This document shows, in pieces, positions 13,814 to 61,526 of a stretch of DNA of 64,000 bases. Each line of letters opens with the position of its first letter. Position 1 is the stretch's first letter. The notes below the pieces were generated by a model. The model saw only the letters and a list, made by a program, of their open reading frames with translations. It searched no databases and was not told the DNA's origin. The DNA comes from Collybiopsis luxurians FD-317 M1. Lineage: Eukaryota; Basidiomycota; Agaricomycetes; Agaricales; Omphalotaceae. A program made the translations under genes and the position numbers. Location: the NCBI GenBank assembly GCA_000827265.1, contig KN834797.1, forward strand, positions 124,001 through 188,000, read 5' to 3'.

Positions 13814-15456
13814 ATGACCTCTCAATACTCCCCTGTCGACGCGCCGAACGGTGACCAACAAGAACGTACTTCTCAGTCTCCTTCAGACGATGCTTCCAAT
13901 GGTTAGTTGATTTCCATTCATTATCTGTTCTTTTATCTCACTCTTCGTGTAGACGGCGACTCTAACCAAACCCTCACTTCACAAACACTCAACGCTGATG
14001 GAACTCCCAAGCGACCCATGAACGCGTTCATGATCTTTGCAAGACGTAGACGTCCCCAGGTCTCATCTGAAAACCAGTCCATGCGTACTGGCGAAATAAG
14101 TAAAATCCTCAGTAAAGAATGGAACTCGATGCCCCCAGTGAGTACAACGACGCCCCGATTCTCGGAAATCACTTGACTCACTCTCACTTCGATCAGTCCG
14201 AAAAGCAATTCTACCTCGATCGCGCAAAAGAACTGAAAGAAACCTTCAACAACAAGTACCCCGACTATGTCTACCGCCGTCGTCCCAATAACTCGCGTCG
14301 AAAGCGCAAAGACAACAACGGTGTTCATTCTGTAGACGGCTCTGGCCCTTCTCCTACCGATCCTCATTCTCACCCTCACCTTCCTGACCCCGGTATGCCT
14401 CGCCAGCCCTACGACGACCACATCCATCCCCATCACCGATCTTCCGGCGGTCTACCCGGGTACGGTGCCCCAGATCCCTACGCTCGCGAATCATCCTCTA
14501 GACAACATCCATATCTTCCCTCCGACAGAGGTCCCCCACCACCTATGAACCACAATGGCCCGCTCCCCTCCCCCCGCCTCCCAGGCCAATCCAACTCCAT
14601 CCCCGCTCTCCACTCCTACCTCTCCTCCCAAAACATCCCCTCCGGTGGACACATGTACCCCGGGCCCGGCGGTCCTGGTGGAGGCTCATCCTCATCACAT
14701 TCCCACTCTTCCTGGGACCATCCACGTCTAGATACCAAATTAGACGGTCACCCAGGCGGAGGCCATGGGAGATCGTCCTCCGCTGGGTCCGGATCAATGT
14801 GGCCTGGATCTGAACGTTCCTCGTCGAGAGGGTACCCCGGCCAATCTGGTTCACCTACAGGTTCCGTAGGACCTGGTGCGCCGAACGGTTCAGCACCGAA
14901 TGGACATGGACATGGGCATGGACACGGGCACCACGCAGGCTCAGGCGACAATTTCCCTTTTCCCTCTCTAAACTCACCTTCGTTCTTCCCTACGCCTTCG
15001 CAGATGTTCAACTCTTCCTCCAACTCGCCTACTTCGTCTACAGGCGGACCGGGTAACGGCCCTTCGTCTGCTTCTTCCACGTCTACCTCTGCAGGGGGTC
15101 CAGGGGGCGGAGGTGGAGGTGTAAGCGCGTTCGGTGCAGCTTCGAACCAACTCCCTCCTCCTCCTGGCGGTCTGTCTACCACCGGAAACACCTCCAACGC
15201 TCGCAGTAGCAGCGGCGGGTACGACGTTCACCGCTCATACGCTCCTTCACCTCCACCGCCCTCTCTCAACGGCGCCGCCTTTGCTCAGTCTGCGTCTAGA
15301 CATGGGCTCGGTGGAGGTTCGGGGATGCCGAGGAGCTTACCGCCTGTGCAGAGTATACCGGGGTATAACCAGCCGGGGTTGGGGAATGGACATGGTGGAC
15401 CACCTGGGCCTTCGCCTGTAGGTGAGATTGGGGATTTGTGGTCGAGGGGATCGTAA
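13814..15456 (+). CDS. HMG-box transcription factor
   Basis: Three exons: 13814-13901, 13953-14137 and 14197-15456, 1533 nt and 510 residues, all phases consistent. Residues 49-119 form a MATA/SOX-type HMG box. It begins KRPMNAFMIFARRRRP, continues MRTGEISKILSKEWNSM and ends NKYPDYVYRRRPNN, followed by a basic stretch SRRKRK that may serve as an NLS. This class binds DNA in the minor groove in a sequence-specific way. The rest is long, disordered and rich in Pro, Ser, Gly and His. It includes an alternating Gly-His run near 326-337 and Ser/Gly runs near residues 345-400. The intron inside the box falls between MPP and SEKQ. The start ATG leads directly into a short acidic N-terminus. Relatives include Rox1/Ste11-like regulators of fungi; which one is the orthologue cannot be told. 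The long 5' flank fits a developmentally regulated gene. Confidence 0.93.
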
Positions 15457-19580: not shown

Positions 19581-21706
19581 TTAAATTGATACAATTTTCT
19601 CCAAGATCTTGTACACTTCGTTAGCCGTAGGACGATCTGCAACCTCCGTCATCCAGCATTGAGTGACCAGTTCCCATATTGGATCTGTACACCACAAACT
19701 TTGCGGCCGAGAGGGCCGCTCACCAGCCATCAAGCTGTAGATTACTGCAGCCTCGGTTTTACGATCATAAAACGGTATCTTGAGGGTTAAAATCTAGTCG
19801 AAAGCTCTTCATGAGGCCGGCATGTAATTAGTACACAAGCGTACCTCCACAACCGTGCAACCAAAAGCATATATATCTCTCGAGCTGTGATTTGAAACCG
19901 ATTCAATGGGGGTGCGATTGATGACTAACTCTGGTGCCATCCAGCGTATCGCACCTCTCATTGTACTGGTTGTGGTATTCCAAGACTGGGAATCTGTAGA
20001 AACTAGAGATAGACCGAAATCTGCGAGACAACAACGTCGATCCTGTGCGACCAAGATATTCGCCTAGAACAATTAGTTCAGTAAGGGAAAGACGGACGAT
20101 GTAAAAGTTCCTTACCCCTCGAATGTCTCCATGCATAATGGATGGTTCTTTGGAATGCAGATAGGCTAGACCCGATGCAATGTCTAAAAGCTGGATCGAA
20201 GTAAGCACATGATATTGAAAATCACTGGTAGGTAACGGACTGCAGTGTGCCGATTATGGGCAGGGTTTTGTCTCAAGTAGGTGATAATATCGCGGTTCAC
20301 CATCCAAGGAGAGATGAGGCAAAAGGATGGGAAGAATAACTCCAAATTCACGCCGAGCAGAGGGAGTATGTTTGGATGTTGGAGCTGCCGCCATAGGAGG
20401 GCTTCGTTGCAGAATTGCTGAGTAGCATATTAAACGTGTGGGCTACATAGAATAGAGCGTCTCGCGTTACTTGTTTACTGACCTGATGAATCTTCTTGCG
20501 GATATCCTCATCTGGCTCAATAACAAGTCTAAGGACTTTAATGCATACTAGTTGGTCTCCAACTCGTCCCTGCCATATATCCTTACAGTGGAAAGGTGTC
20601 AATGAGCTGGCCCAGAACAAATTTCGCGCCATACTCACCGCGAATCCTCCCCCTCCAACAGGATTGTGACCGTTCCGGATAACTTCTCGGACAATTAAAG
20701 AAGATGGTAGGATATGATATTTATTGGACAAGTGACGAAGAGCTTGCAAGCACCTTTTGCTATATCTGCCTTGATCGACGTTCACTTCATCAGTGGTATA
20801 AATTGGGTGTCGGAATCGAGGTTTATCCAACTCCTAACAAACCCAAGAGTGTTAAGATTTGATGAATAATTAATCCCCATCTTACCGACTGAAAAAAATC
20901 TATCAGTCTCTGCACCGATGCTACGTCACAGCTGTGGTACGATTTGAGATGTTGCACCCAATTCCTCTTCCCGCTGTTGTCCCCGTCTTGGGTGGTATAA
21001 TCTTGGACCAGTAAGATTCTTAAATTTGCATAGTCTTTATCGATACCTGAGAGGGATAGGTATACTTAGGCGTTCGGAAATGATATGACGAACCTTCAGA
21101 AGTAGAAATAAGCTCTGATTTTCGGGACCATGGCATTTCGACAAATTTCTGAAGTCCGGCGATACTTGTCAAATCTGTGGAACGCAGCAGGCCGCGGATC
21201 CCTCCATGCAATTGAACCAACGAATTGGTATCTTCCGCGCTCGGAATGGGCTTGGATTGCTGCTCGCCGCAGATAAGTTGCGATGGTTCGGTGAAACTTT
21301 CTGGGCATTTCGAACCTTCAGAATTGGCCATTGCGCTTGATTTAACAGTCCCGATAGAAGTTTTACTGAGAGCTGAAAAGGAGTGCTCGAATGGGTTATG
21401 CTCGAGAAAATGATGCGACGCTCCTTGTTCCGCCAAAACGGGGTCGAACTTCGGTAGCAGTTGGGGACTGGGACAAGATATAACGCCAGTATTCTCCTTG
21501 CCCTGGAGTGCGGAGGGAAGATCCAAATGGAGCATAGCAGATCGGCGTCTACGAGGATGGGAGAGGGAAATATTTGTCGTCTTCATGGACTCGGAGAATG
21601 CTAGTTCGAATGGGTTCCGCTCGATATCAAAATTGGAACGCCTCGGACGTTTGTGTGGAGGAGTAGGCAAAGTGGAGTTCGGAGATGGAATGCGCTTCAA
21701 AGACAT
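19581..21706 (-). CDS. TKL-like protein kinase with an N-terminal NPFE-repeat region
   Basis: Eight exons on the minus strand: 21706-21094, 21046-20886, 20833-20639, 20581-20483, 20417-20241, 20190-20116, 20063-19845 and 19793-19581. They total 1752 nt and 583 residues with all phases matching. The kinase domain (about 311-583) is complete: glycine loop GGGGFADIWQG, Lys 338 in VCIK, HGDIRGAN with Asp 437, DFG at 455-457, and RWMAPE at 480-485. HGD in place of HRD and the motif RGAN are usual in the large Agaricomycete TKL expansion. The first exon encodes a basic patch HKRPRR and two related motifs, ERNPFELAF (31-34 core) and EHNPFEHSF (104-107 core). The NPFE.SF motif recalls the Osm region of fungal ATF/CREB proteins, but no bZIP is present. 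The 47-nt first intron joins the two parts in frame. The first ATG of the open frame was chosen. Substrate and pathway are unknown. The 5' two thirds are duplicated at 24.2-27.1 kb. Confidence 0.85.
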
Positions 21707-22605
21707 GTCGATCTCTTGCGAGAATCTAGCACTGTAAGATGACTGGTACAATAGCAATGTAGAAGCACGTATAGAATCAACTTGGAACCGGCCTTCTGGG
21801 TAGTGGTGGTCAAAGAGACCTGGTACCACAGCTGCCCTAGCTATAACTACACATGAAGAAGAAAAGGTAAGGAAAAGGTGTAGGATTGAGCTTCACGTAA
21901 AGTGGACTCCAATGACGTCTGGCTCACGCATCGAGCGCCGAGACTCGGCTCGCAAATGTTTAGATAATAGACAGGTCTTGAAGCGGGAGGGTGAACGTCC
22001 AGCGGCAAAGCAGTACAGTGGGCGCAGAAAAAGATGTCACTATCCTTATATGGTAACCCCCAAATTCTGAAGGTTTTGCTTCGTTTTTTTTCGCTTGTCC
22101 AATATCACTCTTATGGTTTGTCCATTGTACAAATTTCAGCAGTAGTTATAATGCATCTACGGCCTACGGGAGTCAGTTTATGGTCGAAGTACGAGGCTGG
22201 AGCGCTGTTGGAGCGCAGGTGGGAACGGCTCTTCCATATTTGGAAGTGACATCTTTTCTTAGATCGCTGCAGCGCTGGAATGCTTTTAAAAATGAGTGCA
22301 TATGTCCAGTGGTATTCTAGTACTTTCCAAACGCCTTCCCCTGATAAGTAGCTTCTGGAGTCCTGCATAAACATTCTCCAGAATATCTTTACCAAATCAT
22401 CACGGCCTTTGGTTGGGCTCCTCGGTAAATGATCAAGATCAGCAGAACAAAAAGAAAATTTGATTCAAAAAAGTGATTCCGATGATGCTATCCAGTCCTA
22501 GGTACGAAGGAATTACGTACAACATGAGGAAATGTGGCTGCCATTCACGCATTCTAAGGTGCTCAGGCACTTCCTCCCCGGTCGCTGCACGCACTTCCAG
22601 GCGTT
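21707..22605. other. Kinase upstream flank, duplicated
   Basis: Region between the kinase start and the DUF6534 exon fragment, also present at 25884-26783. A minus-strand frame (about 22395-22111) containing FWRMFMQDSRSYLSGEG is present in both copies. It differs by indels that change its downstream part, so I do not call it a gene. Confidence 0.45.
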
Positions 22606-23014: not shown

Positions 23015-24170
23015 ATCAAGAAATTGAATAAACTAACAGAAATAGAATCAGATCACGTGAGCGCTTAAGTTCTCGGTATCTGTTCGACAGCACAGCATCT
23101 CATCTCCTCCAACCACGACCTTCATGCAACAGTCCAATCTTACATCTGCCCTTCGGCACTACACTGTAGCACATTCGTTGATCATCAGCACCTTCTGTCT
23201 TTTCTCCGACTCCCCTTTCACCTTTCATACCATCGATGGACTGACAGAATTGAAATTCCTAGTTGGAGGAATGACATTCTGGTCTACCGTCATTTCATTC
23301 TCCTTCCTTTCCCTTTCCTGCTTTATCTCGCTCTCTTTCCTTGTACTGCGCTGGACCATCGATCTTGTTATGTACTTCCGGCCCCATCTGAAAGCAATCA
23401 CCATCAATCGGGCTGCGGAAAGGAAGGCTAGGAGGGAGGCTGAGGACAAGGACATGCCGTCCAAACGTGCTGTGTGGAGTAGCGTCTTTTTCTATATCTC
23501 TGTCGGCATCACCCTCTTTCTCGGCGATCTCATCCTTCACCATCCCAAAGGTTCCACGACATTCGAGGACGGATTTCTCTTCCGTATCCTGTATCTTTGC
23601 GACAAAGCCTGTATCATCGTTTATGTGCAGGTTCTACTTCTTGCATTCAATATCTTGCTTGCTATCATCCTCTTCTTTGGACAAGCCCTTGTCTATCACC
23701 GCCGCCAGCAGCGTGCCCCTTCTGCCGATCCCCTTCTGCCTGGCAAGGAAAGTTATTCTGTGCCCGGGGAGACGATCGTAGTCCAGCCGAGGCAGAATTT
23801 TGCACAGGTTCTAGAGGAGAGCCTTACTGACCTTTCAGATGGTATGGATGCGATGTACGAGAAGGTGGTGATGTTTGTTGCACTCCCCGATGCTACAACG
23901 AGGCAGGACAAGGAGTCTTTAATCAAAGCATAGCATTTACGGTCAGTCCATACTTAACATTACTGTCGTATAGCTACATGCTTACGATTGCATGAATCTT
24001 GACAGCTCCTTCCTGGTCTCTCTTGGGCGCCGTTGGGGTGGGATGTAGATTCGGTCTTAGTATCAACTTTTAAGAACACTGTTTTGGTCGATTCAGGCGT
24101 AATCTATATGTTTGTGAGCATTTTGCTACGGTTTAAAGAAGGGTAGAAGTACATGGAGTTCCTCGGTTCG
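23015..24170. repeat. Inverted duplication, copy 1 (membrane protein unit)
   Basis: About 1.16 kb that recurs in inverted orientation at 41957-43126. It includes the coding sequence at 23124-23933 plus about 110 bp of 5' flank and 240 bp of 3' flank. Outside these limits the two loci do not match. Confidence 0.85.
23124..23933 (+). CDS. Multi-pass membrane protein of unknown function, copy 1
   Basis: Single exon of 269 residues starting MQQSNLTSALRHY. Hydrophobic spans lie near residues 14-26, 45-88 (probably two helices), 115-140 and 155-192. A basic segment RAAERKARREAEDKDMPSK lies in the middle, and the C-terminus is hydrophilic with NFAQVLEESLTDLSDGMDAM. About 80 percent of residues match its inverted paralogue at 42211-43023, which differs by one residue in length. 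I do not recognise the family. Persistence of two open copies suggests both were functional. Placement between two kinase copies is probably accidental, through duplication. Confidence 0.75.
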   Translation: MQQSNLTSALRHYTVAHSLIISTFCLFSDSPFTFHTIDGLTELKFLVGGMTFWSTVISFSFLSLSCFISLSFLVLRWTIDLVMYFRPHLKAITINRAAERKARREAEDKDMPSKRAVWSSVFFYISVGITLFLGDLILHHPKGSTTFEDGFLFRILYLCDKACIIVYVQVLLLAFNILLAIILFFGQALVYHRRQQRAPSADPLLPGKESYSVPGETIVVQPRQNFAQVLEESLTDLSDGMDAMYEKVVMFVALPDATTRQDKESLIKA

Positions 24171-24242: not shown

Positions 24243-25883
24243 TTAGTTCAGTAAGGGAAAGACGGACGATGTAAAAGTTCCTTACCCCTCGAATGTCTCC
24301 AAGCACAATGGATAGTTCTTTGGAGTGCAGATAGGCTAGACCCGATGCAATCTCAAAAAGCTGGATCGAAGTAAGCACATGATATTGAAAATCACTGGTA
24401 GGTAACGGACTGCAGTGTGCCGATTGCGGGCAGGGTTTTGTCTCAACTTTCAAGTAGGTGATAATATCGTGGTTCACCATCCAAGGAGAAATGAGGCAAA
24501 AGGATGGGAAGAATAACTCCAAATTCACGCCGTGCAGAGGGAGTATGTTTGGATGTTGGACCTGCCGCCATAGGAGGGCTTCGTTGCAGAATTGCTGAGT
24601 AGCATATTAAACGTGTGGGCTACATAGAATAGAGCGTCTCGCGTTACTTGTTTACTGACCTGACGAGTCTTCTTGCGGATATCCTCATCTGGCTCAATAA
24701 CAAGTCTAAGGACTTTAATGCATACTAGTTGGTCTCCAACTCGTCCCTGCCACATATCCTTACAGTGGAAAGGTGTCAATGAGGTGGCCCAGAACAAATT
24801 TCGCGCCATACTCACCGCGAATCCTCCCCCTCCAACAGGATTGTGACCGTTCCGGATAACTTCTCGGACAATTAAAGAAGATGGTAGGATATGATATTTA
24901 TTGGACAAGTGACGAAGAACTTGCAAGCACCTTTTGCTATATCTGCCTTGATCGACGTTCACTTCATCAGTGGTATAAATTGGGTATCGGAATCGAGGTT
25001 TATCCAACTCCTAACAAACCCAAGAGTGTTAAGATTTGATGAATAATTAATCCCCACCTTACCGATTGAAAAAAATCTAACAGTCTCTGCACCGATGCTA
25101 CGTCACAGCTGTGGTACGATTTGAGATGTTGCACCCAATTCCTCTTCCTGCTGTTGTCCCCGTCTTGGGTGGTATAATCTTGGACCAGCAAAAAAATTAA
25201 ATTTGCATAGTCTTTATCGATACCTGAGAGGGATAGGTATACTTAGGCGTTCGGAAATGATATGACGAACCTTCGGAAGTAGAAATAGGCTCTGATTTTC
25301 TGGGCCATGGCATTTTGACAAATTTCTAAAGTCCGGAGATACTTGTCAAATCTGTGGAACGCAGCAGGCCGCGGATCCCTCCATGCAATTGAACCAACGA
25401 ATTGGTATCTTCCGCGCTCGGAATGGGTTTGGGTTGCTGCTCGCCGCAGGTAAGTTGCGATGGCTCGGTGAAACTTTCTGGGCATTTCGAACCCTCAGAA
25501 TTGGCCACTGTACTTGATTTAACAGTCCCGATAGAAGTTTTACTGAGAGCTGAAAAGGAGTGCTCGAATGGGTTGTGCTCGAGAAGATGATGCGACGCTC
25601 CTTGTTCCCCCGAAACGGGGTCGAACTTCGGTAGCAGTTGGGGACTTGGACAAGATATAACGCCAGTATTCTCCTTGCCTTGGAGTGCCGAGGGAAGATC
25701 CAAATGGAGCATAGCAGATCGGCGTCTACGAGGAAGAGAGAGGGAAATATTTGTCGTCTTCATGGACTCGGAGAATGTTAGTTCGAATAGGTTTCGCTCG
25801 ATATCAAAATTGGAACGCCTCGGACGTTTGTGTGGAGGAGTGGGCAAAGTGGAGTTCGGAGATGGAATGCGCTTCAAAGACAT
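24243..25883 (-). pseudogene. Truncated kinase gene, copy B
   Basis: Closely similar to the kinase at 19581-21706, with start ATG at 25883, and clearly broken in three ways. A CAG codon of copy A is TAG at 25326-25328, right after DLTSISGL. A 7-bp insertion near 24446-24452, after ITYLK, shifts the frame in the exon before the catalytic loop. Everything after HGDIRG (DFG, APE and the whole C-lobe) is missing at 24243. Upstream exons keep their splice sites. The glycine loop and the HPNILPLLG segment remain readable, so decay is recent. Confidence 0.88.
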
Positions 25884-27051
25884 GTCGATCTCTTGCGAGA
25901 ATCTAGCACTGTAAGATGACTGGTACAATAGCAATGTAGAAGCACGTATAGAATCAACTTGGAACCGGTCTTCTGGGTGGTGGTGGTCAAAGAGACCTGG
26001 TACCACAGTTGCCCTGGCTATAACTACAACTGAAGAAGGAAAGGTAAGGAAAGGGTGTAGGATTGAGCTTCACGTAAAGTGGACTCCAATGACGTATGGT
26101 TCACGCATCGAGCGCCGAGACTTGGCTCGCAAATGTTCAGATAATGGACAGGTCTTGAAGCGGGAGGGTGAACATCCAGCAGCAAAGCAGTATAGTGGGC
26201 GCAGAAAAAGATGTCACTACCTTATATGGTAACCCCCAAATTCTGAAGGTTTTGCTTCATTTTTTTTTGCTTGTCCAATATCACTCTTATGGTTTTGTCC
26301 ATTGTATAAATTTCAGCAATAGTTATAATGCATTTACGGCCTACGGGAGTCAGTTTGTGGTTGAAGTACGAGGCTGGAGCGCAGGTGGGAACGGCTCTTC
26401 CATATTTGGAAGTGACATCTTTTCTTAAATCGCGGCAGCGCTAGAATGCTTTTAGCAATATACAAAAAAATGAGTGCATATGTCCAGTGGTACTCTAGTA
26501 CTTTCCAAACGCCTTCCCCTGATAAATAGCTTCTGGAGTCCTGCATAAACATTCTCCAGAATATCTTTACCAAATCATCACGGCCTTTGATTGGGCTCCT
26601 CGGTAAATGATCAAGATCGGCAGAACAAAAAGAAAATTTGGTTCAAAAAAGTGATTCCGATGATGCTATCCAGTCCTAGGTACGAAGGAATTACGTATAA
26701 CATGAAGAAATGTGGCTGCCATTCACGCATTCTGAGGTGCTCAGGCACTTCCTCCTCGGTCGCTGCACGCACTTCCAGGCGTTCTAATCGAGATCGACGT
26801 TCGTATGTTCGGTCACTTCGTCACCAACGTCTATCTCTGTTGTAATATATGGTCTGGCAAAAGTCACCTCCCCACTATCTGCCTCGGAGCGCGAGCTTCT
26901 ATTGCAAGATTCGCAAGGGCTCAATTTTAAGCTCACGACAGCAGAGTTTTCGTCTAACCCAGAAGCCAGAGTTTTACGTCCGTTAAGATTTGCGAGGATT
27001 ACGTTGGAGTAGAGGTTGCACAAAAGGAAAGCACTAAAATGTATGGGGGTT
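24243..27051. repeat. Segmental duplication, copy B (2.8 kb)
   Basis: Partner of 20072-22888 in the same orientation. Copy B is contiguous with the full DUF6534 gene on its right, so this side looks ancestral. On its left it stops where the kinase intron after HGDIRG should continue. Confidence 0.9.
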
Positions 27052-41956: not shown

Positions 41957-43126
41957 GAACCGAGGAACTCCATGTACTTCTACCCTTCTTTAAACCGTAG
42001 CAACGTGTCTTTACCGTACAAGACGCTCCCAAACATATAAATTACGCCTGAATCGACCAAGACAATGTTCATAAAAGTTGATACTAAGACCGAGTCTACA
42101 TCCCACCCCAGCAGTGCCCAAGAGAGACCAGGAAGGAGCTGTTAAGGTTCATTCAATCGTAAGCATACAGCTATACGACAGTAATGCTAAGTATGAACTG
42201 ACCGAAAATGCTATACTTTGATTAAAGACTCCTTGTCCTGCCTTATTCTAGCATCGGGGGGTACAACAAACATCGCCACCTTCTCGTACATTGCATCCAT
42301 ACCGTCCGAAAGGTCAGTAAGTCTCTCTTCTAGAACCTGTGCAAAATTCTTCTTCGGCGGGACTGCGGTCGTCTCCGCGGGTATAGAATAGTTTTCCTTG
42401 TCAGGCCGAAGCGGATCGGCAGAAAGGGCACGCTGCTGGCGGCGGTGATAGACAAGGGCCTGTCCAAAGAAGAGGATAATAGCAAGCAAGAAATTGAATG
42501 TAAGAGCCAGAACCTGCACATAAACGATGATACAGGCTTTGTCGCAAAGATACACGAAACGCGGGAGAAGTCCATCCTTGAACGTCGTGGAACCTTTGGG
42601 ATGGTGAACGATGAGATCGCCAAGAACGAAGGTGGTGCCGATATAGATATAGAGAAAGACAGTACTCGACACAGCACTTTTGGACGGCATGTCCTTGTCC
42701 TCAGCCTCTCTCCTAGCCTTCCTTTCCGCAGCCCGATTGATGGTGATTGCTTTCAGATGGGGCCGGAAGTAGATAACAAGATCGATGGTCCAGCGTAATA
42801 CAAGGAAAGACAGCGAGATAAAGCAGGAAAGGGAAAGGAAGGAGAATGAGATGACGGCAGACAAGAATGTCATTCCTCCAACTAGGAATTTAAGCAATTC
42901 TTTCAGTCCATCGCTGGTATCAAAGGTGAAAGGGGAGTCAGAGAAAAGACAAAAGATGCTGATGATAAACGAATGTACTACGGTGTAGTACAGAAGGGCA
43001 GATGTAAGATTGGACTGTTGCATGAAAGTTGTGGTTGGAGGGAGATGAGATGCTGTGCTGTCGAACAGATATCGAAAGCGCTCACGTGATCTGATTCTAT
43101 TGCTGTTAGTCTATTCAATTCCTTGA
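41957..43126. repeat. Inverted duplication, copy 2 (membrane protein unit)
   Basis: Reverse-complement counterpart of 23015-24170, about 18 kb away. Both flanks of the coding sequence are included, and the match stops near GAACCGAGG on the left and TTGAT on the right. Confidence 0.85.
42211..43023 (-). CDS. Multi-pass membrane protein of unknown function, copy 2
   Basis: Single exon, 270 residues, starting MQQSNLTSALLYYTVVHSFI. It is the paralogue of 23124-23933. Both share the long hydrophobic segment ISFSFLSLSCFISLSFLVLR, the basic segment RAAERKARREAEDKDMPSK and the C-terminal LTDLSDGMDAMYEKV. Differences cluster in and around the predicted helices (for example SSVFFYISVGITLFLG against STVFLYIYIGTTFVLG) and in the linker after HRRQQRA. 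Many differences change the residue, which suggests relaxed or diversifying selection rather than strict conservation. No family was recognised. Confidence 0.75.
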   Translation of the reverse strand: MQQSNLTSALLYYTVVHSFIISIFCLFSDSPFTFDTSDGLKELLKFLVGGMTFLSAVISFSFLSLSCFISLSFLVLRWTIDLVIYFRPHLKAITINRAAERKARREAEDKDMPSKSAVSSTVFLYIYIGTTFVLGDLIVHHPKGSTTFKDGLLPRFVYLCDKACIIVYVQVLALTFNFLLAIILFFGQALVYHRRQQRALSADPLRPDKENYSIPAETTAVPPKKNFAQVLEERLTDLSDGMDAMYEKVAMFVVPPDARIRQDKESLIKV

Positions 43127-47030: not shown

Positions 47031-48970
47031 AATCTTTACCTCGTCCCATCCTGAGTCTGTTTTGACTTGATTAAGGGTTGTCGTTGAGTGGTTGATACTA
47101 GCCGAGAGGAGGTTGTGAGTGGATATTTACTATTGTATTAATATATGGTATTAGAATGTTCCCCTTAGCCTTCAACAAAATGAAGCGGAGTTTTCAGCAA
47201 TAAGTATGCCGGAACGGTGAACGGCATGAAACTTGTGGTCCTGTCTGATACATCTTACCAGTTCCAGCGGAGTTGCGAGCCATGCAAGTGGGTCTACGCT
47301 GTTAGTTCCGTTCTATCCTTCCTAGTCTTGTGGTAGCGGTGTAAACGACTTACCATCACAATCCAGTATACAAATGTTTATTGTCCACCCCCCCTCTCCT
47401 TCTTTCCTTCCAGTCTTTTCTCCTCACTGTATCAATATGCTGTGATTGTCCCCCAGAAACATCCCACTCAAGCTCCACTGTTTACTGTTCGTCGCTCGTG
47501 TTGAAACGACAGGATAAATCGAGGACTTGGCATTACTACACCGCGGATATGTTTATTTTACCAGGACACTCACCCCCGAAGTCAACGAGGCTAGCAACCT
47601 TACGCTTGACCAACAAACATCGATAGTTATCGGACAAGGAGTACAGTCTAATTCAGGTACTTGGATCTCGAATCATCGTGGTCGATATCTCATACTCTTA
47701 TTGGACAAGGACAAGTGGAAGTACAGGAATTGCCTCCATTTCGTTGTCAGTAGTGAATGTACCAACGCGAATACAAAGGGGATGAAGAAGACGGGATAAG
47801 ACTAGTATGACGGACTGTAGATTTATCACTGTCATCCCAGTAAATGTCTTGATCCTTTAGTATGCTGGCGTCGAGTATATCAATCGTACCCTTACTCTTG
47901 CATTTTATTGATGGGGTGGATATCAAGGTAGTGTTGCGCAATTATGGCCAAGACGGGTACAAAGAAAAGGCAGCTGAAAGTGTTGGAGGAATTCGACGAC
48001 GTATGTGCCGGGTATGAGGACGGGAAAAATGCTTCGAAATGCTTGATGATAGTGAAGTCATTCCTATGACGTCCTTGCCTCGAAGTAGGCAGATCCGGGC
48101 CTATTCAAGTGCGCACATACCTTTGATTGCAAAGTGCTATCGACAACGAGAGCAAACGGAGATGGGGAATGGAACACCGCGTTGAGCACCCAAGGATGAA
48201 TTCAACTCAGGCCGTTTGTCTTTCCTTTCGATCACACAATTGCGAAGAATGAATACTCAAAAAGGGGCACGTTCCAGCCGAGAATGGGAGCCAGTCACCT
48301 TGCTTGCAAGGTCTATTGCACTCCACTTCGCTCGCAGAAACTGCACGGATCAAATCGGTCCGAAGGTCACCCTTCATCACCATCGACAAACTAGGTAGCT
48401 ACTAACTGAGGATGGCGTCGCTCTCGGAAGGTATTCATCAGGAGATTTTGTAGCTACAACGCAGTCTGCATCAACACCAGTTGACACATTGCTTATATGC
48501 ATGGACGAAAGGAAACTGAGCAAAGTTTGATAGATTCAATATTCAATGGTTACTTGTCTTAGCCGTAATGTTTAATTTCCATTTTCACTTCCTCACCCTA
48601 ACGATGGAGATACCTTCATCAGCAAGCAAGGTGCTTGACCATGCAAGTGGTCCTTTCATTGGAAACGGAAAATAGAAGTTCATGTGCTAAAACCGCGGAC
48701 ACATGTGTCCATGCAGTAACAAAGTAAAGCTGCTCTCACTAGCGCTCGTTCAACGCTCAGAAGCCTCATTAAATCTTAGGATAGAAGCTTGCCGGAGATC
48801 AAAATAATAAATACCAGGCAGAAACAAGATGCAAGTGCAAGGCATGTGATACTGGGAATTGGTGGCGTGGAGAAAGTACGCTCAGATAGCTGGGTCGATT
48901 CTCACACTGTTTGATCACATGTCTTACGTCTTATTTACCTCTTAACAACGACCATCATCTACTATCAGTT

Positions 48971-51900
48971 ATGTCTGAAAGACGCCGTATGCCCGAAAGC
49001 CATGCTCATTGTAAGTGGTTGAAATATTAGTTCCGTTCTTCTAACTCAGGATCGCAGGCCCAGGATCCACTCCAGTATCCATTCTATCTGGCGCATCCAA
49101 TGTTAGAATGCAAAGATCAAATTTCTACGCAGTAGGAAGGGACGTTCATAATGAGGTTCATCAATATTTTGGTATGACAAATATCCATCTCTATCGGTAA
49201 AACAGTCACAGTCTTATGGAAGCAGGAAAAGATAACATTGATCTCCTCAAGGAAAGGCTCAACCCGATAGTTAATCCTGTTAAAAAACAGATCGGGTGCA
49301 TGAAAGGAACTCGCGTGATAATTCTCAATGATCTCTGTCAGTGGGTTCTCAAGCCAGACAGTCGCATGGCTTGGATTCATGGTTTAGCTGGAAGTGGCAA
49401 AAGTGCAATAGCGGTGACGTTTGCTGAAAAGCTTAGGGACATCAAAGGCAAAGTTACATTGGCATTGACATTTCATTGTGTAAAAGGTCAAGAGACAAGT
49501 AGTACCTCTAATCTGGTGCCAACCATTGGCTACCATTTGGCAAAGATATATCCAGAATATGCCAAAGCAGTATTGGATATACTCGAGAACGATGTCTCTC
49601 TGCATGTGGACAGAGTCCCATTGGAGGAGCAGCTGTCTATCTTCTGCAAGCCAATGTACCAAATTGGCATGTTGAAGCCCACTGTTATTATTATCGATGG
49701 ACTAGATGAATGGGGGACACCTATGGAGCAGCACATCCTGCTTGATCAGCTGCAAGATCAATTAAGCAAAATCAAGTGGATTAGAGTAGTAGTGATGAGC
49801 CGTCCCAATAGGGAAATTCAAAAAGCCATACAAAAAATGAAAGGTCTTCAGTCATTTGACCTCAATGTTGATTATACAGCTCATCAGGATATTGAAATAT
49901 TTTTCAGACAGAGATTTAAATATTGGGATGACAATGAAATCTCAGAGATTGACATAAACAATCTCATATCTAAAGCAGATGGACTATTTATTTGGGCCAA
50001 TACTGCAATGGAATTCATAGCAGAATCAGGCTTGGACATGGCAGGAAACATCCAAGTTGTTTTACAGTCGAAGGGGCATGACAGCGAAAATGAGCACCCA
50101 CATGCCACATTATACAACTTGTATGCAGAGATCTTGAGGCAAAACTTTACCAGCAAACAAAGTCAGCAGCAATACCGATTAATTATAGGTACCATCATTT
50201 CATCTTATGAGCCTTTGACAATTGATGCTCTAAAGACAATGCTTCAGCTTGGGACAAATGTGACTCATCCCGTAGTGCAAAGAGTTATTGATATTTTGAA
50301 AGCAGTGCTATACTTCAGCAATGGGAAGGTTTGCTACCATCTGTCCTTAGCAGAATTTGTAGGCTCTGCACAATGTCCAACTGAGTTTAGAATTCAAAAA
50401 ACCTCGCAACATCAGAATTTGGCCAAGATCTGCATGAAAGTACTTATTGAAGAACTAAGATTCAACATTTGCAATTTGGAAACCTCCTCAATTCCAAATC
50501 GTAAGATAAGCGACTTGAAGAACAGGATTAATCACAAGATTTCATCTCAGCTGCAGTACAGTGCACGGTGGTGGGCACACCATGTAGGCAATGCTGAAGT
50601 AACTGACACCATTGTAAAGAGAGTAAGAGAGCTTACAAGCAATTTTCAATTAATATGGTGGTTAGAATGCATGAGTTTGATGGGAGAGATTTCTAGAGTA
50701 CTGGTAAGTACAAGCGAGATAATGAAATGGGCAGTGAATTTAAAGGTCAGCACTATTATTAAATGGATGAGCAGCCATTGACAAAAAAATAAGGACATAC
50801 ACCTGGTGAAGAGAATGCAGGAGCTACGGCAGTTTGTAAATGTATTCTCAGTCGCATTACATGAGAGTACACCACATCTGTATGTATCAGCATGTGCATT
50901 GCTCCCTTTAAAATCTACATTGAGGGAATACAATATAATTCCTTCTAGAAAAGTTGTAAAAGTGACAAGAGGTGGTCATGCTGGAAAGTGGGAAAAAATA
51001 TTGAATGTGATAGAAACTGAAAGTGTAGTAACATCAGTGGCATATTCACCTAATGGGCAGTATGTGGTATCTAGCTCTTGGGATAATACAGCAAGAATTT
51101 GGAATGCTCAAACAGGTCTGGAAATGAGGGAGCCACTCAAAGGCCACACTAATAGGGTTACTTCAGTGGCATATTCACCTAATGGTCAATATGTGGTGAC
51201 TGGCTCTTATGATAAGACAGTAAGAATTTGGAATGCTCAGACAGATCTGCCAGTTGGGAAGCCACTCAAAGGCCACACCAACAGCATTGCTTCAGTGGCA
51301 TACTCACCTGATGGTCAATATGTGGTATCTGGCTCTTTGGATGAGACAGTAAGGATTTGGAATGTACAAACAGGACTGCAAATTTTGGAGCCACTCAAAG
51401 GCCATACTAATTGGATTACCTCAGTGGTGTATTCACCTGATGGTCAATATGTGGTGTCTGGCTCATATGACAATACAGTAAGAATTTGGAACACTCAAAC
51501 AGGTGTGCAGGTTGGGGAGCCACTTAATGGCCACACTGATGGGGTTACTTCAGTGGCATATTCACCTGATGGTCATTATGTGGTGTCTGGCTCAAGGGAT
51601 AAGGCAGTAATAATTTGGAATGCTCAAACTGGTCAGCAGGTTGGAGAGCCAATTAAAATCCATACTGATTGCATAAGCTCAGTGGCATATTCACCTGATG
51701 GTCAATATGTAGTGTCTGGCTCTTGGGACAAGACCGCTAGAATTTGGAATGTTCAAACAGGTGTGCAAGTTGGAGAGCCACTCAAAGGTCACACTAATTA
51801 CATCACCTTAGTGGCGTATTCACCTGATGGTCAACATGTGGTGTCTGGCTCTTTTGATAATGCAATAAGAGTTTGGAGTGCTGAAACTCATCTACAGATT

Positions 51901-53274
51901 GGACACTCACTTAAAGGCAGCACTCTTTCAGTCACCTCAGCAGAATATTTATCTGATGGTCAGTATATGGTGCCTGGCTCTTCTGATGAGATAGTCAGGA
52001 ATTGGAATACCCAAACAAGTCTGCAAATTGGGAAGTTACAGAAAAATTCCACTGATTCCATTACCTCAGTGGCATATTCACCTGATGGTCAACATGTGAT
52101 TTCCGGGTCTGTTAATAAAATGTTAAGAGCTTGGAGTGTTGAAACAGGTTTGCAGGTTCAGAAGCTATTAAAAGGGCATACTGATTCTGTTACTTCTGTT
52201 GCATATTCACCTGATGGTCAATATTTGGTCTCTGGCTCTAATGATGAGACAATCAGAATCTGGAATGCTAAAGCTGGTCTGCAGGTTCAAGAGCCATTCA
52301 AAGGCCATACTGATAAGGTTACCTCAGTGGCATATTCACCTAATGGTCAATATGTGTTGTCTGGCTCATGTGATAAGACAGTAAGGATCTGGAATGTTCA
52401 AACTGGTTTACAAGTTGGGGAGTCCCTCAAAGGCCACACTAGTTCTGTTACCTCAGTGGCATATTCACCTGATGGTCAATATGTGATTTCCGGCTCTTAT
52501 GATAAGACAGTAAGAATTTGGACTGTTGACTCTGGTCTGCAGGTTGGAGAGCCACTTAAAGGCCACACTCATCTGGTTACCTCAGTGGAATATTCACCTG
52601 ATGGTCAGTATGTAGTGTCTGGTTCTGCAGATGAGACAATACGAATTTGGAATGCTCAGACTGGTCTACAGGTCCGGAAGACACTCAAAGGTCACACTAG
52701 CTATGTTAGTTCAGTGGCATACTCACCTGATGGTCAATGTGTAGTGTCTGGCTCTTATGATGAGACAGTGAGAATTTGGAATACTCAAACAGGCCTGCAG
52801 ATTGGGCAGCCACTCAAAGGTCATACTGATTGGGTTACCACAGTGGCATATTCACCTAATGGTCTTTATGTGGTCTCTGGCTCCAACGACAACACAGTAA
52901 GAATTTGGAATGCTCAGACACATATATATGTGGGGGAACCAACCCAAAATTACATGCCTTCCATTACCTCCATGGCTAATTCACCTGAGGGTCAATGTAT
53001 GCTCTCCCACTTAAGTAATAATACAGTAAGGTTTTCCCAAGAGCACACCTTTCAACTACCTCCCAATGTTCAATCAGGTCATATCAATAAGCATGGTTGG
53101 CTTTGCTCTGAACAACAACTCATTCTTTGGCTTCCTCCCTGGATGAGGTCTGGTTTTCAAGATAAACGTCAAATTCTCACCATTCCTGCTGATGCTGAAA
53201 ATTGTAGTCTTTCTGTGGACTGGTTAAATTTTGTTTATGGAACTCAATGGACTGAATGTTGGGTTACTGCTTGA
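48971..53274 (+). CDS. NLR-type receptor: short N-terminal motif, NACHT, WD40 array (copy 1)
   Basis: Four exons: 48971-49010, 49058-49171, 49226-50745 and 50794-53274. They give 4155 nt and 1384 residues with all phases matching. The N-terminus (1-52) has no large effector domain but contains SGASNVRMQRSNFYAVGRDV, a motif shared with copy 2. The NACHT NTPase has Walker A GLAGSGKS (104-111) and Walker B TVIIIDGLDEWG (about 204-215), then a helical region. Exon 4 encodes a short linker, 15 clear WD40 repeats of 43 residues and one decayed repeat. It ends in the cap seen in basidiomycete WD40-NLRs (GWLCSEQQLILWLPPW, FVYGTQWTECW). Such proteins act as cytosolic sensors of non-self or pathogens, oligomerising on ligand binding. 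Repeats are nearly identical except at a few positions. Introns match copy 2 in place and phase. The WD40 exon is very poor in CpG. Ligand and output are unknown. Confidence 0.92.
51026..53012 (+). repeat. WD40 coding tandem repeat, 129-bp unit, copy 1
   Basis: About 15.5 units of 129 bp, each encoding a frame like VTSVAYSPDGQYVVSGSxDx followed by TVRIWNAQTGLQVGEPLKGH. Unit length is constant, so the array stays in frame and can expand or shrink by unequal exchange. Units 7-9 and 16 are the most diverged. Confidence 0.95.
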
Positions 53275-57063: not shown

Positions 57064-60000
57064 ATGAAGCACATCAAAAACACCATAAACTTTCTTTCAC
57101 CGCGCTCTGAATCTAACATCAAAGAAGATCATGAACAAGCAATTGCTGGTCAATGTAGGATAGCCGTGCACATTTATTGCGGATATCCAAATTAACAATT
57201 TATAGCGCTGGGGTCTTCCCAAGTAAACACGTTCTCGGGAGCATCCAATATTAAAATACAAGGATCATCAACCTTCAATACTGCAGGGAGAGATGTTCAT
57301 CACCAAGTGATCAACCAATACAATGGTAAAACTTTAAAATAGCGGCACACTAAAGCATTGACAATCTTTTTCAAACAGATAAGAATGATATTGACACTCT
57401 TAAAGAATTGAAGGAAAAGCTGAAGCCAATTGCCAATCCCGTAAATAAGCATATGAGCTGCATGGAAGGGACCCGCGTCGGTCTACTCAGTGACCTGTGT
57501 AATTGGACACTCACACTAGTCACCCACATGGCGTGGATCCATGGTGTGGCTGGAAGTGGCAAAAGTGCAATAGCAGTTGCTCTTGCTGCAAAACTCCGCG
57601 AAATGAATGACCAAGTTATCTTGGCCCTAACTTTCCATTGTGTCAAGGGTCAGGAAACAGATAATATTTTCTCACTTGTGCCAACTATGTGCTATCATTT
57701 GGCAAAGGTGCACCCAGAATATGCACTGCATTTACTGGATATATTGCAGAAGGATGCCTCCTTGCAGGCACAACACATACCAGTGCAGGAACAGTTTTCA
57801 GTCTTTTGGAAACCATTGCATCAACTGACTCCATCAAAGCCCACTGTGATTATCATTGACGGACTAGATGAATGGGGAAAGCCAATGGAACAGTACAGGC
57901 TTCTCAAATGTCTGCAAGAACATTTGAACAAGATCAAGTGGATTCGAATAATAGTGACAAGCCGGCCTTACAGTGAAATTGAAAGAGCCATGATAAACCA
58001 CAATCAGGTTCAGTCATTTGACTTGACTACTACATACACTGCACAAGATGATATTGGAATATTCCTGGAAGAAAGATTTACCCAGTTAGGGAATGACAGA
58101 GTTTCAAAAAATCATATAGCTGGTCTTGTATCCAAAGCAGATGGTCTCTTCATTTGGGCTACTACTGCAATGGAGTTTATAGAATCAGGATTTGACATAG
58201 TGGCAAATATCCAAGACATCTTGGATTTGGGGAATAACAGTAGTATTGAGCAACCCCATATGGAATTGTATGTCTTGTACAGAGAGGTGTTGATACAGTA
58301 CTTTGAAAATACACAGAAGCAGAAATACTTTCAATTGATTACAGGCACAATAATTTCAGCATTTGAGCCATTAACAATTGACGCTCTGGTTAACATGCTG
58401 AACTTGCCTCATGATGTGGTTGAGAATGTACTAAAAGCATTGAAGGCATTGCTCTATGTGTGCAGTGGAAAAGTGTATTATCATTTGTCACTGGCGGAAT
58501 TCTTACATTCTGAGGAATGTCCTCAAGAGTTTCAAATCCAAAGAAACTTCCATCACCAGAGATTAGCAAATGTTTGCATACAAGTATTGTCCAGGGAGCT
58601 TAAATTCAACATTTGTCAACTTGAGACATCCTCAATTCAGAATCACAAAATACAAGATCTACCAATTAGGATTGAAAAAAGAATCTCAGGCCAACTTCAA
58701 TACAGTGCACAATGGTGGGCACACCATGTAAGCAATGCTGAACCAATAGGTTATGTGATGAATGGGGTAAGAGACATTACATGCAGTTGTAAAATAATAT
58801 TTTGGTTGGAGTGTTTAAGTTTGATGGGGAACATCAATAGGATAAGGGTTAGCACAAGGATAATCAGAAAATGGGCTCAGAAGATAAAGGTAAGAATAGC
58901 TTCTCAGAGGAAAGTGAGTGGTGATTTATACTGGCAATAACAAACAGGACCTTGAAACTATGGAGGTAATGCAGGAGTTGGAGCAGTTTGTTGGGGTATT
59001 CTCTGGTCCATTGGAAGCAAGTACACCACACATTTATGTATCAGGATGTGCACTTGTACCTTCAGAATCTGCACTGCGAGAACACAAAATCATACATCCT
59101 AAGCAGATTATAAAGGTAACAAGAAGTGGTCATGGTCTGAAATGGGAGAGAATGTTGCATATAATGAATAATAAACAGAAAGTGACATCTACAGCATATT
59201 CACCTGATGGGCAATATGTGGTGTCTGGCTCTCATGATGAGACAGTAAGAATTTGGAATGCTCAAACAGGTCTGCAAGTTGGGGAACCACTCAATGGCCA
59301 CACTAGCAGCATTACCTCAGTGGCATATTCACCTGATGGTCAATATGTGGTGTCTGGCTCTTGGGATAAGACAGTAAGAATTTGGAATGCTCAAACAGGT
59401 CTGCAGGTTGGGGAGCCACTCAAAGGCCACACTTGGTGGGTTAACTCAGTGGCATATTCACCTGATGGTCAATATGTGGTGTCTGGCTCTCAGGATGAGA
59501 CAGNNNNNNNNNNNNNNNNNNNNNNNNNNNNNNNNNNNNNNNNNNNNNNNNNNNNNNNNNNNNNNNNNNNNNNNNNNNNNNNNNNNNNNNNNNNNNNNNN
59601 NNNNNNNNNNNNNNNNNNNNNNNNNNNNNNNNNNNNNNNNNNNNNNNNNNNNNNNNNNNNNNNNNNNNNNNNNNNNNNNNNNNNNNNNNNNNNNNNNNNN
59701 NNNNNNNNNNNNNNNNNNNNNNNNNNNNNNNNNNNNNNNNNNNNNNNNNNNNNNNNNNNNNNNNNNNNNNNNNNNNNNNNNNNNNNNNNNNNNNNNNNNN
59801 NNNNNNNNNNNNNNNNNNNNNNNNNNNNNNNNNNNNNNNNNNNNNNNNNNNNNNNNNNNNNNNNNNNNNNNNNNNNNNNNNNNNNNNNNNNNNNNNNNNN
59901 NNNNNNNNNNNNNNNNNNNNNNNNNNNNNNNNNNNNNNNNNNNNNNNNNNNNNNNNNNNNNNNNNNNNNNNNNNNNNNNNNNNNNNNNNNNNNNNNNNTG

Positions 60001-61526
60001 TGGTGTCTGGCTCTCATGATAAGACAGTAAGAATTTGGAATGCTCAAACAGGTCTGCAGGCTGGGGAGCCACTCAGAGGCCACACTGACAAGGTTACATC
60101 GGTAGCATATTCATCTGATGGTCAATATGTGGTATCAAGCTCTTGGGATCATACAGTAAGGATTTGGAATGCTCAAACAGGCCTGCAAGGCAGGGGGCCA
60201 CTCAAAGGCCACACTCATTATGTTTTCTCAGTGGCATATTCACCTAGTGGTCAACATGTGGTGTCTAGCTCTGGGGATCATACAATAAGAATTTGGAATG
60301 CTCAAACAGGTCTTCAAGTTGGGGAGCCACTCAAAGGTCACACTAAAGGGGTTACCTCAGTGGCATATTCACCTAATGGTCAATATGTGGTGTCTGGTTC
60401 TTCTGATGAGACAGTAAGAATTTGGAATGCTCAAACAGGTCTGCAGGTTCAGGAGCCACTCAAAGGCCACACTCAATGGGTTAACTCAGTGGCATATTCA
60501 CCTAATGGTCAATATGTGGTGTCTGGCTCTCATGATAAGACAGTAAGAATTTGGAATGCTCAAACAGGTCTGCAGGTTGGGGACCCACTCAAAGGCCACA
60601 CTAGTGGGGTTACCTCAGTGGCATATTCACCTGATAGTCAATATGTAGTGTCTGGCTCTTGGGATGATACAGTAAGAATCTGGAATGCTCAAACAGGTCT
60701 CCAGGTTGGGAAGCCACTCAAAGCCCACATTCAAATGGTTACTTCAGTGGCATATTCACCTGATAGTCAATATGTGGTGTCTGGCTCTTATGATAAGACA
60801 GTAAGAATTTGGAATACTCAAACAGGTCTGCAGGTTGGGGAGCCACTCAAAGGCCACACTCATTGGGTTACCTCAGTGGCATATTCACCTGATGGTCAAT
60901 ATGTGGTGTCTGGCTCATATGATGATACAGTAAGAATTTGGAATGCTCAAACAGGTCTGCAGGTTGGAAGGCCACTCAAAGGACACACTGATTGGGTAAC
61001 CTCAGTGGCATATTCACCTGGTGCTCAAAATGTGGTGTCTGGCTCTCATGATAAGACAGTAAGAATTTGGAATGCTCAAACAGGTCTGTGGGCTGGGTTT
61101 ACCTCAGTGGTGTATTCACCTAGTGGTCAATATGTAGTACCTGATGTTGGGAATAACATCACAAATCAAGTCCTGCAACCAAATCTTCATTTACATGCTG
61201 CTTCACCATCAATGCATGGCCACCAACCTTCCTTCACATCAATGTATACTCCCCCCTCTCAAAAATTTCATCACCCAAATGATCTCTTGCAACTTCCTTC
61301 TAGTATCCCTTCAGGCTACATTGATGACCAAGGCTGGCTTTGTTCTAATAATGGAGAGCTCATTATTTGGCTTCTTCCTTGGATGAGACATGGGTTTACA
61401 GATAAATGTCAAATCCTTACTATTCCTCCTGATGTCATTAATTGTGCTGTTTCTGTAGACTGGTCAAATTTTGTTCATGGAACCCAATGGACTGAATGTT
61501 GGAATTCAGCTTCGGCTGCTGTATAA
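57064..61526 (+). CDS. NLR-type receptor: short N-terminal motif, NACHT, WD40 array (copy 2, with assembly gap)
   Basis: Exons 57064-57148, 57206-57325, 57379-58889 and 58948-61526; the last contains 495 N. The first three exons give 572 codons in frame. The N-terminus holds SGASNIKIQGSSTFNTAGRD, matching copy 1. The NACHT domain has Walker A GVAGSGKS (124-131) and Walker B TVIIIDGLDEWG about 100 residues later. The WD40 array shows two full repeats and part of a third before the gap, then a partial repeat, eight full repeats and two decayed ones after it. The protein ends with GWLCSNNGELIIWLLPW and FVHGTQWTECW, the same cap as copy 1, preceded by an extra linker rich in His, Pro and Ser. Intron positions and phases match copy 1, so the two arose by tandem duplication. 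An earlier in-frame ATG exists at 57022. Exact length is unknown because of the gap. A role in non-self recognition is inferred from the family. Confidence 0.88.
59177..61140 (+). repeat. WD40 coding tandem repeat, 129-bp unit, copy 2
   Basis: Same 129-bp unit as in copy 1, interrupted by the gap at 59504-59998. Units after the gap are even more alike than in copy 1, for example repeated TVRIWNAQTGLQVGEPLKGH, which points to recent homogenisation. Confidence 0.93.
59504..59998. other. Assembly gap (495 N)
   Basis: Run of N inside the WD40 array of NLR copy 2, most likely caused by near-identical repeats. Equivalent positions of the repeat on either side are 524 bases apart, whereas four units would be 516, so the gap size is an estimate. 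Confidence 0.99.

What the first reader, a model, noticed from the sequence alone, without database searches (positions are those of the whole stretch)
51026..53012. WD40 repeats of NLR copy 1 vary only at a few positions, as in fungal allorecognition receptors
The 15 clear repeats share most residues. Variation falls mainly on the two residues after GHT (NR, NS, NW, DG, DC, NY, DK, SS, HL, SY, DW), on the residue after SGS (W, Y, L, R, F, N, C, A) and on the residue after the following D (N, K, E). In Podospora HNWD receptors the same kind of limited set of positions lies on the binding face of the propeller and is under diversifying selection, while repeats are homogenised. Here the pattern appears inside one gene and is shared with its tandem neighbour, so this locus is a strong candidate for a rapidly retargeted recognition receptor.
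Basis: partly seen in the sequence, partly recalled or inferred. Interest (0 to 1): 0.8.

Follow-up and report, generated by a model that had tools for sequence, protein, structure and literature searches.

The report
Fungal immune receptor with hypervariable propeller
A mushroom gene encodes an immune-type receptor whose propeller-shaped sensor varies most at a few loop residues, as in a known ascomycete family; its repeats match a DNA repeat shared with sister genes, and this copy has aged rather than stayed uniform.

Summary
The window is from Collybiopsis (Gymnopus) luxurians (100% match over 86% of the query to the partial record GYMLUDRAFT_106290). Copy 1 is an open NACHT-WD40 NLR gene. 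Against the backbone synonymous rate, replacement change there is in excess in copy 1 (dN/dS 1.67, 1.32-2.12), carried by codons 16 and 41; with free per-site synonymous rates it is not significant. Two corrections: 39 of 43 positions vary and 25% of replacement differences fall at the four; and copy 1 is not homogenised, 0 of 15 units having its nearest relative in the gene (copy 2: 7 of 9). The pattern is general: 16 and 41 are in the top five in 22 of 22 arrays. Copy 1 and copy 2 share one backbone DNA consensus although their NACHT domains differ at dS 1.79, pointing to a shared repeat pool. It is a new fungal NACHT-WD40 NLR that works like the Podospora receptors but fails their internal-conservation test. 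Allorecognition is not shown.

The parts
49090..49173 (+). N-terminal exon segment of copy 1 with a short amyloid-like motif (GASNVRMQRSNFYAVGRDVHNEVHQYFG)
   Evidence: Translation and a regular expression of my own; also found before NACHT in copy 2 and in 15 of 20 fetched paralogs. Likeness to the NLR05/08/22/44 meta-family rests on its description in PMC9815663, not on a profile match; no Pfam match.
49216..50745 (+). copy 1 NPHP3_N/NACHT exon
   Evidence: Pfam NPHP3_N 3.9e-21 and NACHT 2.1e-07; open frame.
50746..50793 (+). 48-bp phase-0 intron of copy 1 (GT...AG)
   Evidence: Read from the sequence; agrees with the splice of GenBank protein P0001 (...AVNLK/DIHLV...).
50794..53274 (+). copy 1 second coding exon: linker, WD40 array, C-terminal tail, stop at 53272-53274
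   Evidence: ORF 50806-53274; translation; Pfam WD40, 14 stretches.
51034..52968 (+). fifteen 129-bp WD40 units r1-r15
51937..52065 (+). unit r8, the most diverged; predicted loop or hinge between two propellers
   Evidence: 25% from the family consensus; residues 362-415 under pLDDT 50 with an alignment, and the longest internal stretch under 50 is again here (residues 309-363) in the single-sequence run.
52969..53097 (+). degenerate 16th unit
   Evidence: residues 711-751 under pLDDT 50.
53098..53271 (+). C-terminal tail (GWLC...ILWLPPWMR...DW.NFV.GTQWTECW)
   Evidence: Translations; copy 1-copy 2 dS 0.52 over 56 codons of 53086-53265.
57238..57327 (+). N-terminal amyloid-like motif of copy 2
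57408..58940 (+). copy 2 NACHT open frame; by comparison with copy 1 its last bases are intron (my reading)
   Evidence: ORF; Pfam (translation 57390-58937).
59188..61094 (+). copy 2 WD40 array, 12 units seen, 3 of them partial
59504..59998 (.). 495-N assembly gap inside the copy 2 array

Best explanation
Copy 1 is a working-looking fungal NLR. Its NACHT motor carries a WD40 sensor that the models suggest is two seven-bladed propellers (r1-r7 and r9-r15) with diverged r8 as the join. On each blade the b-c turn (residue 16, less so 18) and the d-a loop (41, less so 40) vary, most likely under diversifying selection, on a conserved scaffold. The sensor is thus a ring of changeable contact residues whose combination would set the bound ligand. 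By analogy with het-d/het-e, binding would release NACHT oligomerisation and a downstream death effector, here perhaps through the short N-terminal amyloid-like motif. The 129-bp units of the 22 arrays behave almost as one family-wide pool around one DNA consensus, so arrays are seeded or renewed across genes. Copy 1 has not been renewed for a long time and its backbone has drifted; copy 2 is young. Shown here: architecture, variable positions, excess over the backbone synonymous rate, shared consensus, lack of within-gene clustering in copy 1. Inferred: selection as the cause, ligand binding, exchange mechanism, signalling, role.
For: Pfam domains and open frame. Positions. Pooled fit with the synonymous rate fixed at the backbone mean: 16, 18, 40, 41 and 43 above 1, none of the other 38. 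Hot-residue difference is 0.78 in 7 young and 0.79 in 15 old arrays (my split after seeing the divergences), so it does not grow with array age. Consensus pS 0.000 against NACHT dS 1.79 for copy 1-copy 2; consensus pS below NACHT pS in 231 of 231 pairs. NACHT codon usage would give 36% master codons, 87% are seen. Linker dS 0.90, tail dS 0.52. Copy 1 is not collinear with any of 21 arrays, while the trio L012/L013/L016 is, z 6.9-8.1. Models.
Against: With a free synonymous rate per site none of the five is significant in copy 1; pooled, 18 and 43 pass (p 0.03, 0.046), 16 is at 0.05, and 40 and 41 get synonymous rates of 8.9 and 10.6 and come out nominally negative (p 0.019, 0.018); position 7 passes on a synonymous rate of zero; in copy 2 only 16 passes; the single-copy fits also ran to extreme rates at some sites. 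I read 40 and 41 as saturation or recombination but did not prove it. Units keep slight gene identity: within-array distance 0.154 against 0.167 shuffled, 0 of 500 as low, also in the 15 old arrays alone (0.186 against 0.195, 0 of 500). Between-gene unit pS is below linker pS in 221 of 231 pairs and below tail pS in 175 of 210, so not in all. Of four hold-out arrays two agree, L031 partly (30 of 38 codons; 16 not in the top six), L030 had 4 usable units. pTM is 0.47; the single-sequence model is poor (pLDDT 59.0).
Confidence: 0.68

Rival explanations
1. One reading: copy 1 itself is an actively homogenised, rapidly retargeted allorecognition receptor.
For: Replacement excess at the four positions; same positions as the neighbour.
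Against: Synonymous divergence within copy 1, 0.376, is not below its mean to other genes, 0.337; 0 of 15 units is nearest to a sister unit; backbone identity 0.68.
Confidence: 0.12
2. Relaxed constraint, not selection: the top-face loops are simply free to vary, and the shared consensus is an old array inherited through gene duplication.
For: R1 positions carry many residue types in WD40 proteins in general (PMC3419727, passages); free-rate tests are not significant in copy 1; hot codons have more synonymous differences too (25 of 87 same-residue pairs at codon 40 against 247 of 4141 in the backbone, young arrays).
Against: In the 7 young arrays dN at the five hot codons is 3.3 to 5.7 times the backbone dS. 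An inherited array predicts collinearity, absent between copy 1 and all 21 others, and unit dS like NACHT dS (0.34 from pS 0.276 against 1.79).
Confidence: 0.14
3. A targeted mutational process hits the hot codons, so that diversity there is made by mutation rather than kept by selection.
For: Third-base diversity at hot codons (0.33-0.58) exceeds the backbone third base (0.124) in young arrays, and free-rate synonymous estimates at 40 and 41 are high.
Against: At codon 16, 0 of 41 same-residue pairs (two-fold residues) differ synonymously in young arrays; recurrent selected change could give the rest; I looked for no mutator or template.
Confidence: 0.04
4. Short-read assembly mixed or collapsed the arrays, creating false patterns. 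That this assembly is short-read is my assumption.
For: 495-N gap in copy 2; Ns in the loci L016, L026 and L027; short-read assemblies of such genes are unreliable in Podospora (PMC12222747, abstract).
Against: Copy 1 units differ by 13% or more of backbone bases from each other, so reads can tell them apart; 22 of 22 arrays agree on 16 and 41.
Confidence: 0.04

Closest known systems
Podospora anserina NWD/HNWD genes (het-d, het-e, het-r)
   Same: NACHT plus WD40 repeats; few hypervariable codons flanking two conserved ones (D17 and V42 here); replacement excess; intergenic sharing of repeats (PMC1805685 passages; PMC2873952 passages).
   Different: No HET domain found; 43-aa instead of 42-aa unit; position 40 joins the variable set and 43 is mostly fixed in copy 1; in 10 of 22 arrays no unit has its nearest relative in its own gene, whereas Podospora repeats cluster by gene.
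Fungal NLRs with highly conserved WD repeats (Dyrka et al. 2014)
   Same: Internally conserved WD repeats, typically 42-43 aa, reported in ascomycetes and basidiomycetes (PMC4986451 section).
   Different: Copy 1 lies below that paper's 85% identity by my mean pairwise measure; copy 2's backbone is 0.88.
Gymnopus luxurians FD-317 M1 NLRs with NLR05/08/22/44 motifs (Wojciechowski et al. 2022)
   Same: Same strain; N-termini of 200 NLRs examined, several dozens with the motif (PMC9815663 section).
   Different: That section treats N-termini; the passages I read say nothing on these repeats.
Apaf-1
   Same: STAND protein with a double WD40 propeller (recalled); second and third PDB hit of the model.
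   Different: Not internally repetitive or hypervariable (recalled); its 7+8 blades are recalled, the models here suggest 7+7.
Highly repetitive propeller 2ymu
   Same: First PDB match of the model, 38% identity, TM-score 0.39 by query length.
   Different: No NACHT in the solved chain (recalled).

Membership tests
Fungal NACHT-WD40 NLR | NACHT/NPHP3_N ATPase domain with Walker motifs | tested here: met
   Both Pfam hits above cut-off; GLAGSGKSA and VIIIDGLDEW in the frame (motif names recalled).
Fungal NACHT-WD40 NLR | C-terminal WD40 repeats in the same gene | tested here: met
   WD40 5.4e-182; spliced as one protein in the GenBank record P0001.
Podospora-type NWD with high internal conservation | repeats about 85% identical within the gene | tested here: not met
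   Copy 1 mean pairwise backbone identity 0.679 (my measure, not their pipeline); copy 2 backbone 0.877. Copy 1 is therefore not filed in this group.
Podospora-type NWD with high internal conservation | hypervariable codons flanking the conserved D and V | tested here: met
   16, 18 and 41 of the four in copy 1; 43 is mostly T in copy 1 and in the top five in 10 of 22 arrays.
Podospora-type NWD with high internal conservation | replacement over synonymous excess at those codons | tested here: inconclusive
   1.37 (1.04-1.80) for the Podospora set against backbone dS; not significant with free site synonymous rates in copy 1.
Podospora-type NWD with high internal conservation | concerted evolution within the gene | tested here: not met
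   Copy 1 within 0.376 against between 0.337, 0 of 15. Seen in copy 2 (7 of 9) and L009 (12.3 of 14, ties shared).
Podospora-type NWD with high internal conservation | repeat-number polymorphism among isolates | not testable with these tools
   One genome only.
HNWD | N-terminal HET domain | tested here: not met
   No plus-strand open stretch over 70 aa upstream of the NACHT frame in 47800-49215; 10 of 17 such stretches of 35 aa or more searched, no Pfam match. A domain split over small exons or further upstream is not excluded. PMC9815663 reports no HET in basidiomycete NLRs (passage).
Heterokaryon incompatibility (het) gene | allelic specificity and cell death on fusion | not testable with these tools
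   Needs crosses or transformation.

The most novel reading that the evidence does not exclude
In this mushroom the sensor repeats of the NLR family form nearly one interbreeding population of 129-bp units (differentiation 0.06 in the backbone over 22 arrays). Genes draw, renew and lose whole sensor arrays from that pool, with exchange between genes outweighing homogenisation within them, the reverse of what was reported for Podospora. NLR motors would then be platforms on which a common sensor pool is repeatedly re-dealt, and copy 1 an array left out of circulation.
Probability: 0.4. Interest if true: 0.65.

Novelty: new member of a known kind. Interest (0 to 1): 0.42.

Why it matters
It shows with codon-level measures that the variable-face design worked out in one ascomycete family recurs in a large basidiomycete family, and adds a position to the set. 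If the shared-pool reading holds, receptor renewal could be dated gene by gene by comparing backbone age with hot-site diversity, which would make the origin of fungal recognition repertoires testable with a few long-read genomes.

Tried and rejected
Ancient array copied along with its gene: rejected for copy 1 by lack of collinearity. Codon bias as cause of the shared consensus: rejected. RIP-like mutation as cause of copy 1's drift: left open. G>A is the commonest change in all three sets (copy 1 0.135, copy 2 0.068, others 0.086 per site); C>T is raised in copy 1 (0.112) and the others (0.054) but not in copy 2 (0.021); contexts were counted but not normalised. Seven-fold periodicity inside copy 1: mean distance 0.231 at lag 7 against 0.218 at lag 1, no signal. 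A first codon fit had poorly optimised null models (some negative likelihood ratios; codons 16 and 41 of copy 1 looked significant) and was replaced. One search stopped with an error after the copy 1 bootstrap and was rerun. Papers: abstract, named sections or passages only of PMC4986451, PMC12222747, PMC1805685, PMC2873952, PMC3419727 and PMC9815663; others seen as search listings. Searches for prior work on these repeats; no listing shows a paper on the repeats of this family in this species, but most subscription papers are not held.
Full report
What it is. The window is G000:C49:124001-188000 of a 64.3-Mb genome. The copy 1 repeat exon matches the partial GenBank protein GYMLUDRAFT_106290 of Collybiopsis (Gymnopus) luxurians FD-317 M1 at 100% over 86% of the query. 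Copy 1 has a short N-terminal exon, a NACHT exon (49216-50745), a 48-bp intron that agrees with the splice of that GenBank protein, and a second exon with linker, 15 clear 129-bp WD40 units (51034-52968), a degenerate 16th and a tail. Upstream of NACHT no HET or other Pfam domain was found (10 of 17 plus-strand stretches of 35 aa or more in 47800-49215 searched). Copy 2 has the same plan with a 495-N gap in its array.

Observation. With S of SVAYSPDG as position 1, positions 16, 18, 40 and 41 are the four most variable of 43 in both copies; in each, only that set out of 123,410 reaches the value. But 39 of 43 positions vary in copy 1, and 25.3% of its replacement differences (46.5% in copy 2) fall at the four. 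Backbone identity is 0.68 in copy 1, second lowest of 22 arrays.

How general. Of 326 candidate NACHT matches in the genome 83 were scored; 49 of these have 53% identity or more, about 45 loci after I merged split pieces. I fetched 20 of these loci. With both window copies this gave 22 arrays and 266 units, after dropping 30 of 269 weakly matching units of the fetched loci. Positions 16 and 41 are in the top five in 22 of 22 arrays, 40 in 21, 18 in 17, 43 in 10. From the 120 relatives listed I aligned 36 with copy 1. Of these 37 proteins 36 had at least 7 units in a fixed register, 29 of them from other basidiomycete species; 16 and 41 are in the top six of 27 positions in 36 of 36, 40 in 34, 18 in 32, 43 in 30 (the regular expression itself fixes some of the other residues). 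Of four hold-out arrays L029 and L032 agree, L031 partly, and L030 had 4 usable units. I ran no control on ordinary, non-NLR WD40 proteins.

Mapping. Wu et al. (PMC3419727, passages) place top-face hotspots at R1, R1-2 and the residue before the tetrad Asp; by their pattern these are 43, 41 and 16 here. Paoletti et al. (PMC1805685, passages) report codons 7, 9, 25 and 27 around conserved 8 and 26; by spacing these are 41, 43, 16 and 18.

Selection. Codon by codon in copy 1, 16 (2.97) and 41 (2.81) exceed 1; 40 (1.30, 0.66-2.40) and 18 (0.85, 0.54-1.17) do not; 43 (0.40) is below 1. In likelihood fits with the synonymous rate fixed at the backbone mean, 16, 18, 40, 41 and 43 exceed 1 in the pooled arrays and no other position does; in copy 1 alone 16 and 41, in copy 2 alone 16, 18, 40 and 41. 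With free synonymous rates the support is weak: pooled 18 and 43 pass, 16 is at p 0.05, 40 and 41 turn nominally negative with very high synonymous rates, position 7 passes because its synonymous rate is zero; in copy 1 none of the five passes, in copy 2 only 16. The case for selection therefore rests on using the backbone as the neutral yardstick, and it assumes trees that repeat exchange would blur.

Age and exchange. Copy 1 units are as far from each other (synonymous 0.376) as from other genes' units (0.337); copy 2 is 0.142 against 0.226. None of 15 copy 1 units has its nearest relative in copy 1; 7 of 9 complete copy 2 units do; over all arrays 40 of 263 do (shuffled labels 11.5 on average, at most 23.5); 10 of 22 arrays have none, and only copy 2 and L009 more than half. 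Yet copy 1 and copy 2 have the same backbone consensus at the DNA level (pS 0.000 over 38 codons) although NACHT differs at dS 1.79, the linker at 0.90 and the tail at 0.52. Consensus pS is below NACHT pS in 231 of 231 pairs; single units are closer than the linker in 221 of 231 pairs and than the tail in 175 of 210. Codon usage of the NACHT exon would give 36% master codons; 87% are seen, 84% in copy 1. Units radiate star-like (observed over star expectation 0.95 median), and copy 1 is not collinear with any of 21 arrays (z -1.8 to 1.4), while the trio L012/L013/L016 is (z 6.9-8.1). Slight gene identity remains (0.154 within, 0.167 shuffled, 0 of 500). In Podospora the repeats cluster by gene (PMC2873952 passages; PMC12222747 section), so the balance looks different here. 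Of 7 C. confluens proteins 4 share one unit consensus and a fifth differs from it at one residue, and it is not that of C. luxurians.

Diversity and age. I split the arrays, after seeing their divergences, into 7 young and 15 old. Hot-residue difference is 0.78 and 0.79 in the two and does not correlate with backbone divergence (rho -0.17, p 0.46); 263 units show 259 different five-residue combinations. The low ratio in copy 1 therefore reflects backbone ageing rather than loss of hot diversity. Backbone pN stays below pS in copy 1 (0.175 against 0.376), so the scaffold is still constrained.

Structure. With an alignment of 37 sequences, two strand blocks, mostly above pLDDT 90, match r1-r7 and r9-r15, while residues 362-415 (end of r7 and most of r8) are below 50; mean 80.9, pTM 0.47. 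Without an alignment the model is poor (59.0), but the longest internal stretch below 50 is again there, residues 309-363. This favours 7+7 with r8 out; 7+8 is not excluded. Array slot counts are 14 in 8 of 21 arrays and 15 in 5, the rest 10 to 22 (copy 2 left out for its gap, copy 1 counted without its 16th, some arrays with gaps or cut at contig ends). The first PDB matches are 2ymu and Apaf-1.

Verdict. A real, well-placed pattern in a new member of a known kind, the fungal NACHT-WD40 NLRs. Copy 1 works like the Podospora receptors but is not filed with their high-internal-conservation group, because that test fails. The strongest claims of the finding, homogenised repeats and rapid retargeting, fit copy 2 and some sister arrays better. 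The family-wide shared consensus is the part worth following.

Noticed in passing
window 49090-49173 and 57238-57327: Both genes have a short amyloid-like N-terminal motif before NACHT. The published analysis of this strain reports one HeLo protein with a double HET-s motif (PMC9815663); that it could be a partner here is my guess.
   Followed up: partly
window 59504-59998: 495-N gap inside the copy 2 repeat array; Ns also in L016, L026 and L027.
   Followed up: no
G000:C49:173216-383122: About nine related NACHT loci lie within 210 kb of the window's contig; the one at 208164-209641 has stop codons.
   Followed up: no
L025: Array of about 22 slots, enough for three propellers.
   Followed up: no
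L028 units 3 and 7: Units four apart are nearly identical at protein level, which suggests a recent block duplication.
   Followed up: no
P0100 and P0077: One C. luxurians and one C. confluens protein have a unit consensus unlike their sisters and similar to each other, perhaps a second old subfamily.
   Followed up: no
window 14119-15456, 21020-21829, 23124-23933, 25326-26006, 42211-43023: Five ORFs over 200 aa without a Pfam match at E 0.001.
   Followed up: partly
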